Below the pieces are notes generated by a model, which ran no database searches, had not been told where the DNA came from, and saw only the letters and a program-made list of their open reading frames with translations. This document shows, in pieces, positions 24,446-37,605 of a stretch of DNA of 60,662 bases. Made by a program: the position numbers and the translations under genes. The stretch spans positions 6,389 through 67,050 of the forward strand of contig DJXI01000058.1 of NCBI GenBank assembly GCA_002449695.1, read 5' to 3'. Each line of letters begins with the position of its first letter. The first letter of the stretch is position 1. The stretch comes from Verrucomicrobia bacterium UBA7008 (GTDB lineage: Bacteria; Verrucomicrobiota; Kiritimatiellia; RFP12; UBA1067).

Positions 24446-24462
<17 letters not shown>
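24097..24462 (-). CDS. Small lipoprotein with a coiled-coil body
   Basis: The product is 121 residues with a lipoprotein signal, ending in the lipobox LLTGC at Cys21 (followed by Pro, so not the inner-membrane-retaining Asp). The rest is charged and helix-forming, with heptad-like Leu/Ala spacing. ATG 24462 lies inside the last codons of the upstream giant gene (17-base overlap) without a ribosome site, so translation is probably coupled. The stop is four bases before the start of the 5252-residue gene. Placement between two giant secreted proteins suggests an outer-membrane-bound helper or anchor for one of them; this is inference. Confidence 0.75.
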
Positions 24463-36046
<11,584 letters not shown>

Positions 36047-36236: not shown

Positions 36237-36543
36237 GCTAGAACGGGGCAGCTGGCTAGACTAGCTAGAACGTGGCGGCAAGCTAAAGAAGCTAGAACGG
36301 GGCGGCAAGTGTGCCGCCCCTAATCTAGAACGCCCGCACGAAGTGCGGGCTAATCTAGAACGCTCGCGCGTTGCGCGAGCTAATCTAGACTTTCTAGACA
36401 AGCGCGGCCGTGCCGCGCGCTCTAGGTTAGCCCGCGCAGCGGGCGTTCTAGATTAGGAACGGGGCCACCGCCCCGTTCCGTTCTAGATTAGCTCGCACCC
36501 CGTGCGAGCGTTCTAGATTAGCCCGCGAAGCGGGCGTTCTAGC
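36237..36543. repeat. Hairpin array A: eight palindromic units joined by CTAG linkers
   Basis: After one degenerate 24-bp unit (36237-36260) and further CTAG-containing sequence, eight hairpins follow. Stem arms are 36299-36307/36312-36320, 36332-36339/36343-36350, 36362-36369/36373-36380, 36402-36408/36412-36418, 36430-36435/36439-36444, 36456-36465/36470-36479, 36491-36498/36502-36509 and 36521-36526/36530-36535. Loops are 3-4 bases. Units 1-3 read CTAGAACG-stem-TAATCTAG on the plus strand; units 5-8 carry the same linkers on the opposite strand; unit 4, flanked by two TCTAGA sites, marks the switch. I count fourteen CTAG in about 310 bases. Stem sequences differ between units while staying complementary. 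The array ends at the stop of the four-helix-bundle gene. Confidence 0.9.
36291..36487 (+). repeat. 197-bp direct repeat, copy 1
   Basis: This segment of array A aligns without gaps to 37393-37589 in the same orientation, with three mismatches in 197 bases. The two copies flank the four-helix-bundle gene. Confidence 0.92.
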
Positions 36544-37237
36544 CTACCTACCCTGCTGCGCTTTCAGCGCGTTGATCTCGCCGCGCAGCCGGTTGATTGC
36601 CAAATTCAGCAGCATGATCTCCCTGTCCCTTTGCGCCAGCAGCATACGCAGCTTCGGCGCTTCGCGCGCGTCATCCCGCTGCTCCAGCCGCCGCTCCTGG
36701 CGCGCGTCACGCATCTGCTCGCGCGCGCTGCCCAGCTCGACAAATTCCGACTGCATTTTGCGGATATGCGACACCATCATTCGGTCGATCATGTGGCAGA
36801 GCGTATTGGCGCAATTCGCCAGCGTTTCATCATCGCATCTGCCGAAGAGCGGTTCATAGTCCTTCAGCGCATTGTGCGCACGGCAGAACGCGAGCATTTT
36901 GGCATAGCGCGGATGGCGCGCCGTCCAGCACATCAGCTTGTGCGTGCGCCTTGAGATAATCGAGATAATCTTCCTTCAGCTCCTTGATGCTGCCGCGCGC
37001 GACATTCAGGAGATTAATGGCGATTTCACTGGACGTGACGCCATCGGCATAACCTTCGACGATATTCTGCTTTCCGGAGCGCGCGGCCTGGACCATTTGA
37101 TCGACCGTCCGGTCGCCATGCGCGGGCAGAAAGCGGCGGCAGAAAGCGACGGTCAGCTGATAGAGGGCATCGGCTTTTTGATAGAAGTATAATTTGCGCC
37201 AATCCGTCTGATTCCACGATATTTTTCTTGCTTTCAT
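36544..37237 (-). pseudogene. Four-helix-bundle protein (23S rRNA intervening-sequence/Avd-like, 'four helix bundle suffix' type), split by a frameshift
   Basis: The first frame (from ATG 37237) gives a typical four-helix-bundle start: WRKLYFYQKADALYQLT, then RTVDQMVQAARSGKQNIVEG and LLNVARGSIKELKEDYLDYL. It loses the family sequence near 36945. The second frame (open to the stop at 36544) continues with the expected second half: CWTARHPRYAKM, DYEPLF, ETLANCANTLCHMIDRM and SEFV. It then adds a charged helical tail of about 50 residues. Skipping one base in GCGCACGCAC restores a single protein of about 230 residues. No slippery heptamer is visible, so I call a frameshift mutation or sequencing error rather than programmed frameshifting. 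Relatives are encoded inside 23S rRNA intervening sequences or act as Avd in retroelements. Here the gene sits between two hairpin arrays. Confidence 0.8.
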
Positions 37238-37243
37238 GGTTTG

Positions 37244-37273
37244 ATTATATCACAGGGAAAGAGCGGTTGTCTA
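37244..37273 (-). promoter_or_regulatory. Promoter of the four-helix-bundle gene, likely giving a leaderless transcript
   Basis: On the minus strand TAGACA (37273-37268; five of six) and a perfect TATAAT (37249-37244), preceded by an extended -10 TGA, are separated by 18 bases. The -10 ends only six bases before the ATG at 37237, so transcription should start at or next to the A of the start codon. No ribosome site is present. The -35 box lies at a CTAG site at the edge of array B. Confidence 0.6.
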
Positions 37274-37312
37274 GCCGGAATTTTCGAAATCTTACGCGCG
37301 CGGCGAGAGAGG

Positions 37313-37597
37313 GGCGGCTGGCTAGAGAAGCTAGAACGGGGCGACTGGCTAGACTAGCTAGAGAAGCTAGAACGGGGCGGCTGGCTAGACTGGCTAGAAC
37401 GGGGCGGCAAGTGTGCCGCCCCTAATCTAGAACGCCCGCACGGAGTGCGGGCTAATCTAGAACGCTCGCGCGTTGCGCGAGCTAATCTAGACTTTCTAGA
37501 CAAGCGCGGCCGTGCCGCGCGATCTAGGTTAGCCCGCGCAGCGGGCGTTCTAGATTAGGAACGGGGCCACCGCCCCGTTTCGTTCTAGACTATCTAG
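37313..37597. repeat. Hairpin array B: six palindromic units joined by CTAG linkers
   Basis: Array B begins with degenerate units, including two 24-bp copies (37330-37353 and 37366-37389), that form no clean hairpin. It continues with six hairpins at 37401-37422, 37434-37452, 37464-37482, 37504-37520, 37532-37546 and 37558-37581. These match the first six hairpins of array A in order and orientation, including the switch of linker orientation after unit 4. About sixteen CTAG sites occur in it. It lies just upstream of the four-helix-bundle promoter and just downstream of the terminator of the next gene. Confidence 0.9.
37393..37589 (+). repeat. 197-bp direct repeat, copy 2
   Basis: This is the gap-free partner of 36291-36487. 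The three differences are a loop base of hairpin 2 (A to G), a linker base after hairpin 4 (C to A), and a base in the stem of hairpin 6 (C to T) that still permits a G-U pair in RNA. Confidence 0.92.
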
Positions 37598-37605
37598 CCT
37601 TTCCA

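What the first reader, a model, noticed from the sequence alone, without database searches (positions are those of the whole stretch)
36237..37597. Four-helix-bundle gene framed by two arrays of CTAG-linked hairpins: a candidate new element
A 23S-IVP/Avd-like four-helix-bundle gene fills exactly the space between two hairpin arrays: its stop lies within three bases of a CTAG of array A, and its -35 box lies at a CTAG beside array B. Relatives of this protein are known from mobile or RNA-linked settings (23S rRNA intervening sequences, Avd of diversity-generating retroelements). A layout of one small nucleic-acid-associated protein plus flanking palindromes recalls REP/RAYT systems, but no transposase is present. 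I infer that the protein recognises the hairpins as RNA or DNA, and that array-gene-array is a mobile or duplicating unit.
Basis: partly seen in the sequence, partly recalled or inferred. Interest (0 to 1): 0.85.

Follow-up and report, generated by a model that had tools for sequence, protein, structure and literature searches.

The report
Four-helix-bundle genes inside repeat-array elements
Genes for a small helical protein of unknown function sit, in most cases tested across many bacterial phyla, between matching arrays of short DNA repeats, and comparison with relatives shows that such units come and go as pieces, which points to an overlooked kind of mobile genetic unit.

Summary
The layout is real and general. 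Two CTAG-linked hairpin arrays (direct copies, 93% identical over 245 nt, 1102 nt apart) flank a gene with a TIGR02436 (IVP-like) domain and TIGR04258 suffix; here it is frameshifted. Relative G021 has the same neighbour genes and one such array, no gene. Of 58 TIGR04258 genes in the genus, 53 of 54 testable have a short tandem array on at least one side (period 7-10; 15-20% of control windows), 31 on both, 30 of these with one period. Repeat class follows the protein tree (6 changes; shuffled mean 24.7). Plain TIGR02436 genes behave alike: 66 of 76 named loci have inverted, mostly heptamer, repeats next to the gene (controls 2 of 67, 3 of 112). One unit lies between speA and speE, at most 60 nt apart in 21 of 27 genus loci. 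No other gene family recurs within 1.5 kb in more than 3 of 80 loci. I read this as an undescribed class of small mobile or selfish unit: one four-helix protein plus cognate arrays, rRNA intervening sequences being a special case. Recognition and movement are inferred. G021's single array could be an assembly collapse.

The parts
36237..36543 (.). Array A: CTAG-linked GC hairpins, forward units then reverse units
   Evidence: left flank matches the left flank of the single array in G021
36544..36933 (-). 3' part of the split four-helix gene, 129 aa, with TIGR04258 suffix and C-terminal helix
36854..37237 (-). 5' part of the split gene in another frame, 127 aa, TIGR02436 / 23S IVP-like domain
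37244..37273 (-). promoter-like TAGACA-18-TATAAT, -35 box over a CTAG
   Evidence: consensus match only
37303..37600 (.). Array B: second, directly repeated copy of the hairpin array
   Evidence: D3, 93% over 245 nt; right flank matches the right flank of the single array in G021

Best explanation
The island is a decayed member of a widespread class of small selfish or mobile units. A unit is one gene for a four-helix-bundle protein of the IVP/TIGR02436 family, with or without the TIGR04258 suffix and a clade-specific C-terminal part, set between arrays of a 7-10 nt repeat that differs from unit to unit. In the plain form the array before the gene and the array after it are inverted copies, so a transcript or single strand could pair its ends around the gene, as in 23S rRNA intervening sequences. 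In the TIGR04258 form seen here each side carries its own forward-then-reverse array, the two sides are direct copies, and gene-free arrays of related type are scattered in the genome. I infer that the protein binds its own arrays as folded RNA or single-stranded DNA, that units settle between genes of an operon because a folded intergenic insert is tolerated there, and that arrays also spread alone as satellites. The enzyme that joins DNA is probably the host's, by recombination or replication template switching between arrays, not one in the unit. Shown: layout, generality, clade-repeat link, presence or absence at fixed sites. Inferred: binding, movement, tolerance.
For: Genus: array at 5' in 47 of 55, at 3' in 38 of 57, either 53 of 54, both 31 of 54 (same period 30 of 31); controls 21 of 143 and 24 of 120 windows. 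Repeat class on the 56-row tree: 6 changes, shuffled mean 24.7, 0 of 200 as low; the 15 CTAG rows are one side of one branch, SH-aLRT 95. G021: same neighbours, one array, no gene; left flank is A's, right flank is B's. Array hairpins, G021 against A: loops changed at 10 of 23 positions, stems 0 of 124 (Fisher 1.2e-9); against B 11 of 23 and 1 of 124. Named loci: inverted flank score at least 22 in 66 of 76, own partner best of all partners in 49 of 76; outer windows 2 of 67, direct orientation 8 of 76; neighbour ORFs 3 of 112, window ORFs 4 of 72. Phylum loci: median 28 against 14 (outer), Wilcoxon 2.7e-6, own partner best in 16 of 30. speA-speE gap at most 60 nt in 21 of 27; units with different repeats in G000/G021, G012 (IVP 49% identical) and G036 (IVP too distant for tblastn, TIGR02436 108 bits). 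Same strand as upstream gene 66 of 75, downstream 54 of 73, no baseline taken. Apart from ORFs antisense to IVP, no other family recurs in more than 3 of 80 loci within 1.5 kb.
Against: No binding or movement was observed. Arrays and genes inherited together would give a clade-repeat link without recognition; the tree is a quick one with long-branch warnings, and 2 of its CTAG labels and 1 other were set by hand. At the lenient threshold 15-20% of control windows also pass. In the phylum loci the lag test is weaker: at least 22 either side 26 of 30, both 15 of 30, controls 8 of 59; at 26 either 10 of 30, controls 6 of 59, one locus being N runs. 10 of 76 named loci show no inverted flanks at the threshold. 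G021's single array could be an assembly collapse: a gene contig of about 800 nt may have been lost to a length cut-off. No target-site duplication was identified. IVP proteins are hardly basic (median net charge +1, positive in 49 of 80; TIGR04258 +4, 51 of 58). Gene-free CTAG arrays are common: 23 of 45 genomes without a CTAG-clade gene have some, G021 267 matches, so the gene may not be needed for their upkeep, unless missed in incomplete genomes. Y1 transposase and RT genes are commoner in genomes with IVP (p 5e-8 and 0.002), so a trans-acting enzyme is possible.
Confidence: 0.6

Rival explanations
1. The hairpins are REP-like palindromes moved by a RAYT/Y1 transposase elsewhere in the genome, and the four-helix gene is a passenger caught between two copies.
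For: G000 has 5 Y1_Tnp matches, and Y1 is commoner in IVP-bearing genomes, 117 of 143 against 20 of 51. Dispersed gene-free CTAG arrays exist; 112 pattern matches against 2 in the control.
Against: No Y1 domain in the two island ORFs scanned; 26 of 143 IVP genomes show no Y1 match; the repeat follows the four-helix protein clade; plain members of the same family are flanked by other short repeats in many phyla. Genome size may confound the Y1 association. Where the 5 Y1 genes of G000 lie was not looked at.
Confidence: 0.12
2. The arrays are simple sequence repeats that grow by replication slippage at tolerant intergenic sites, and the gene is an unrelated small selfish ORF that survives in such sites.
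For: Heptamer repeats are abundant in several bacteria and slippage has been proposed for them (passages of PMC4692102 and PMC4679880).
Against: Slippage alone does not predict that the array after the gene is the inverted unit of the array before it, 66 of 76 against 2 of 67; nor close neighbours with a whole unit present or absent; nor repeats sorted by protein clade.
Confidence: 0.12
3. IVP units are non-autonomous retroelements: the transcript folds by its inverted arrays, the IVP/Avd-like protein loads it on a host reverse transcriptase, and cDNA is inserted.
For: PF05635 resembles Avd of DGRs (passage of PMC10053308); IVP lies on the strand of the upstream gene in 66 of 75; RT and IVP co-occur, p 0.002; G000 has one RVT_1 match, beside what I read as DGR repeats.
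Against: 83 of 143 IVP genomes of the phylum have no RVT_1 match; no second family recurs in more than 3 of 80 named loci within 1.5 kb.
Confidence: 0.13

Closest known systems
Intervening sequences (IVS) of 23S rRNA with an S23/IVP ORF
   Same: Same protein family; ORF between inverted ends; heptamers before the S23p ORF are reported for one such IVS (passages and discussion of PMC4990558).
   Different: Not in rRNA: no Rfam match at gathering score in the window or in 20 of the 80 named loci. They lie between protein genes, each with its own repeat; gene-free arrays are scattered; the TIGR04258 form has array modules as direct copies on both sides.
REP/RAYT (REPtron) systems
   Same: One protein gene between copies of a palindromic repeat that is also dispersed without the gene; repeat type follows protein clade (for RAYT: recalled).
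   Different: The two ORFs here show a four-helix family and no Y1 domain; most units tested are tandem 7-10 nt repeats; the hairpins here are joined by CTAG, not the GTAG or CGTC tags named in the title of PMC3733652 (listing).
Avd of diversity-generating retroelements
   Same: Homology of Avd and PF05635 (PDB 2GSC) is suggested in PMC10053308 (passage).
   Different: No RT or template/variable repeat seen at the locus; the one RVT_1 match of the genome is on another contig.
Heptamer repeats GGGAATC (Xanthomonas), GGGGA(C/T)T (Nostoc) and TAACTGA (Beggiatoaceae, some cyanobacteria)
   Same: Mostly intergenic heptamer arrays of unknown function; [quoted passage not shown]
   Different: The words S23, four helix and intervening do not occur in either main text. 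The link between those arrays and IVP genes was not tested here.

Membership tests
TIGR04258 four helix bundle suffix | score above curated cut-off | tested here: met
   41.9 bits against 40
TIGR02436 four helix bundle protein | score above curated cut-off | tested here: met
   33.4 bits against 24
PF05635 23S_rRNA_IVP | score above gathering score | tested here: not met
   31.7 against 33.8 for the split 5' part; intact relatives also score below it, 24.5-26.5
23S rRNA IVS | insertion inside a 23S rRNA gene | tested here: not met
   no Rfam match in the window nor in 20 of 80 named loci
23S rRNA IVS | ORF between inverted ends | tested here: met
   66 of 76 named loci; in the window each array is itself forward-then-reverse
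23S rRNA IVS | RNase III excision | not testable with these tools
   needs RNA work
REP/RAYT | Y1/HuH transposase gene between the repeats | tested here: not met
   the two island ORFs scanned match TIGR02436, TIGR04258 and, below cut-off, PF05635 and two related models; no Y1
REP/RAYT | many dispersed gene-free copies | tested here: met
   112 CTAG-array matches against 2 control; the 50 printed lie in 10 clusters, 1 at a four-helix gene
REP/RAYT | GTAG or related tag at the hairpin foot | tested here: not met
   hairpin feet are CTAGAACG and TAATCTAG; tag definition from a paper title and recall
Diversity-generating retroelement | RT at the locus | tested here: not met
   the one RVT_1 match of the genome is at C61

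The most novel reading that the evidence does not exclude
IVP/Avd-like four-helix proteins are a large family of repeat-specific nucleic-acid binders, each paired with its own 7-10 nt array; the C-terminal part sets the repeat (zipper-like helix with palindromic CTAG or CCGG cores, zinc ribbon or W-ended tail with GAC-type cores), and this class explains many of the unexplained heptamer arrays of bacterial genomes as well as rRNA intervening sequences.
Probability: 0.35. Interest if true: 0.92.

Novelty: categorically new. Interest (0 to 1): 0.85.

Why it matters
The function and origin of rRNA intervening sequences were still called unclear in PMC4990558 (2016, discussion), and heptamer arrays in bacteria were described without a known maker or function (PMC4692102, PMC4679880, passages). 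Finding that IVP genes as a rule sit inside matched arrays, that a unit has empty sites in relatives, and that the repeat follows the protein turns both into one testable question: does the protein recognise its own array? If so, it is a mobile unit of about 0.5-1.1 kb with no transposase of its own, whose gene family is present in 143 of 194 genomes sampled from this phylum.

Tried and rejected
Rfam scan of the window: nothing. Exact 5-mer spacing exceeded shuffles at 5' in 31 of 55 and at 3' in 26 of 57 flanks, outer controls 2 of 35 and 3 of 52, both flanks 17 of 54; it misses degenerate units and was followed by lag autocorrelation. A heptad-count classifier of C-termini misfiled rows and was replaced by motif rules made after looking at the alignment, so that cross-table is descriptive. 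Its two-way split of repeats put 10 of 18 coil rows as palindromic, 7 as GAC-type and 1 as weak, because it counts GAC tetramers over the whole flank; the simpler count, CTAG at least 3, gives 14 of 18 coil rows against 1 of 40 others. One coil row (G006) has a non-palindromic unit, TCCCAA. Reverse transcriptase as a required partner: rejected as general, since 83 of 143 IVP genomes show none. A conserved second gene: none found within 1.5 kb. One search counted one locus of N runs (L135) as an array; it was left out. Dropped or not seen: 4 of 80 named loci at contig ends, the one archaeal record among them; 2 of 58 genes left out of the tree, 3 labels set by hand; 30 of 39 speE matches fetched, of which 3 had no speA match. 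In L104 no IVP match was found by tblastn; alignment with L099 shows an internally shortened copy.

Full report
What is in the window. Array A (36237-36543) and array B (37303-37600) are CTAG-linked GC hairpins. They share a 245-nt direct copy, 93% identical, 1102 nt apart. Between them, on the minus strand, lies a four-helix gene with a TIGR02436 domain and a TIGR04258 suffix, split over two frames. The hairpin motif occurs 10 times in the window, 0 times in 50 shuffles, 15 times in the genome and 0 times for the reversed control.

Same locus in a relative. Genome G021 has the same left gene end and the same right gene (56% identical protein; 98% DNA over 615 nt further on), but between them only one hairpin array and no four-helix gene. 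Its left flank aligns with that of A and its right flank with that of B. So the difference is one gene plus one array. In a 192-nt block A and B differ at 1 loop, 1 stem and 1 linker position; G021 differs from A at 10 of 23 loop, 0 of 124 stem and 1 of 45 linker positions, from B at 11, 1 and 0. That fits gain in the G000 line, or gene conversion between A and B. Loops vary, stems hardly do, so the hairpin is what is kept, by selection or by a process acting on hairpins. Caveat: a short-read assembly could collapse two arrays and lose a short gene contig. G021's two TIGR04258 genes are of the zinc-ribbon type, and that genome is 85% complete.

The layout recurs with other repeats. TIGR04258 occurs in 35 of 61 genomes of the genus (34 over the cut-off), 58 genes. 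In G000 the C2 copy lies between octamer TTCTAGNN arrays and the C93 copy between GGGGACNNT arrays. Over all genes: array at 5' in 47 of 55, at 3' in 38 of 57, either in 53 of 54, both in 31 of 54, with one period in 30 of 31; controls 21 of 143 and 24 of 120. At a stricter threshold: either 45 of 54, both 26 of 54, controls 12 of 143 and 9 of 120. Repeat class (CTAG, period 7, 9 or 10) needs 6 changes on the protein tree, shuffled mean 24.7; the 15 CTAG rows, from 14 genomes, are one side of a branch with support 95 (quick tree, two of these labels set by hand). The C-terminal part follows too: zipper-like helix, zinc ribbon (PF01396 at or just under its cut-off in the two tested) or W-ended tail; CTAG at least three times in 14 of 18 zipper-like rows and 1 of 40 others. 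These are linked traits, so shared descent alone could give part of this.

Arrays without the gene. The pattern of three CTAG spaced 8 or 9 nt is found in 37 of 59 genomes: in 14 of 14 with a CTAG-clade gene and 23 of 45 without (Fisher 9e-4; counts, Mann-Whitney 4e-5). In G000 there are 112 matches against 2 in the control; the 50 printed lie in 10 clusters, 1 of them at a four-helix gene.

The plain family behaves alike. G000's one plain TIGR02436 match (C85) has GAGAGTT-type heptamers before it and AACTCTC after it. In this phylum TIGR02436 occurs in 143 of 194 genomes. For 29 of the 30 loci fetched there, plus C85, the immediate upstream and downstream flanks are inverted copies: median score 28 against 14 for outer windows and for other loci's flanks; the own partner is best in 16 of 30. 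The lag test on the same loci is weaker (either 26 of 30, controls 8 of 59; stricter 10 of 30 and 6 of 59), since these arrays are short. A scan of named genomes gave 80 loci, the best of at least 587, from many phyla. Of 76 testable, 66 score at least 22, against 2 of 67 outer window pairs, 8 of 76 in direct orientation, 3 of 112 neighbour ORFs and 4 of 72 window ORFs. The best lag of the downstream flank is 7 in 66 of 76 (ties go to 7). No Rfam family matches in the 20 loci tested.

Empty sites. The C85 unit lies between speA and speE. In 27 genus loci with both genes the gap is at most 60 nt in 21, including relatives whose SpeE is 90-96% identical; it is 528 nt in G000 and G021. G012 has at the same place another TIGR02436 gene (49% identical) with GGTTAAA/TTTAACC heptamers, and G036 a third (TIGR02436 108 bits) with GTTGAG-type repeats; G033 holds a shortened relative of the latter and G054 a gene-free repeat stretch; the gap of 128 nt in G043 holds a different palindrome. 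In L179 and L190 a unit lies between what I read as yicC and gmk; in L200 the same pair holds a gene-free repeat and a unit follows gmk (gene names are my reading). By a crude choice of neighbour ORFs, units lie on the strand of the upstream gene in 66 of 75 and of the downstream gene in 54 of 73.

What moves it. In 80 named loci with up to 1.5 kb on each side, IVP ORFs cluster in 77; the next clusters are ORFs antisense to it (6 loci) and families in at most 3 loci. RT is present in 69 and Y1 in 137 of 194 genomes; 60 of 143 IVP genomes have RT, 117 have Y1, 17 have neither. Incomplete genomes soften this, but neither looks required. The predicted structure of the intact C2 copy (mean pLDDT 86.9) is a helical bundle plus a long C-terminal helix. 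In the PDB no match reaches E 0.001; the best are the chains of 2gsc (Xcc0516), TM-score by target 0.67-0.85, E 0.01-0.05. A plain IVP protein matches 2rld by sequence, E 2.4e-38.

Literature seen. PMC4990558 (passages and discussion): IVS with S23p ORF and variable heptamers; origin and function unclear. PMC4692102 (abstract, passages) and PMC4679880 (passages): heptamer arrays, no IVP named. PMC10053308 (passages): PF05635 resembles Avd. PMC10910872 (two passages): an IVP protein is named in a figure legend on CRISPR associations. REP papers: search listing only. Searches for a described link between this family and flanking repeats found none beyond the Coxiella heptamers; the library lacks most subscription journals and preprints, and NCBI's family comments were not read.

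Verdict. The finding is real and far wider than the window. The nearest known kinds each fail a defining feature: rRNA IVS (not in rRNA) and REP/RAYT (no Y1 domain in the unit's ORFs). Hence categorically new, with the caution that rRNA intervening sequences are very likely its best-known outliers.

Noticed in passing
L217:227-2359 (G000 contig C11): A gene that I read as penicillin-binding protein 1C carries in frame a gene-free GAGAGTT/AACTCTC hairpin (4 + 4 exact units), the same unit type as the C85 element.
   Followed up: partly
L075 (G000 contig C61): The genome's one RVT_1 match lies beside repeats that I read as a DGR template and variable region, with an HRDC-like accessory ORF.
   Followed up: no
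L100 (G043), speA-speE gap: A palindrome unlike the heptamer arrays sits in a 128-nt gap at the same place.
   Followed up: no
window 24446-36046: A single 3866-aa open frame, glycine-rich, whose 5' end adjoins array A.
   Followed up: no
L176 (Phormidium): Its IVP unit has the heptamer CCCGACT (GGGAGTC on the other strand, rotated), one base from the GGGAATC repeat published for Xanthomonas.
   Followed up: no
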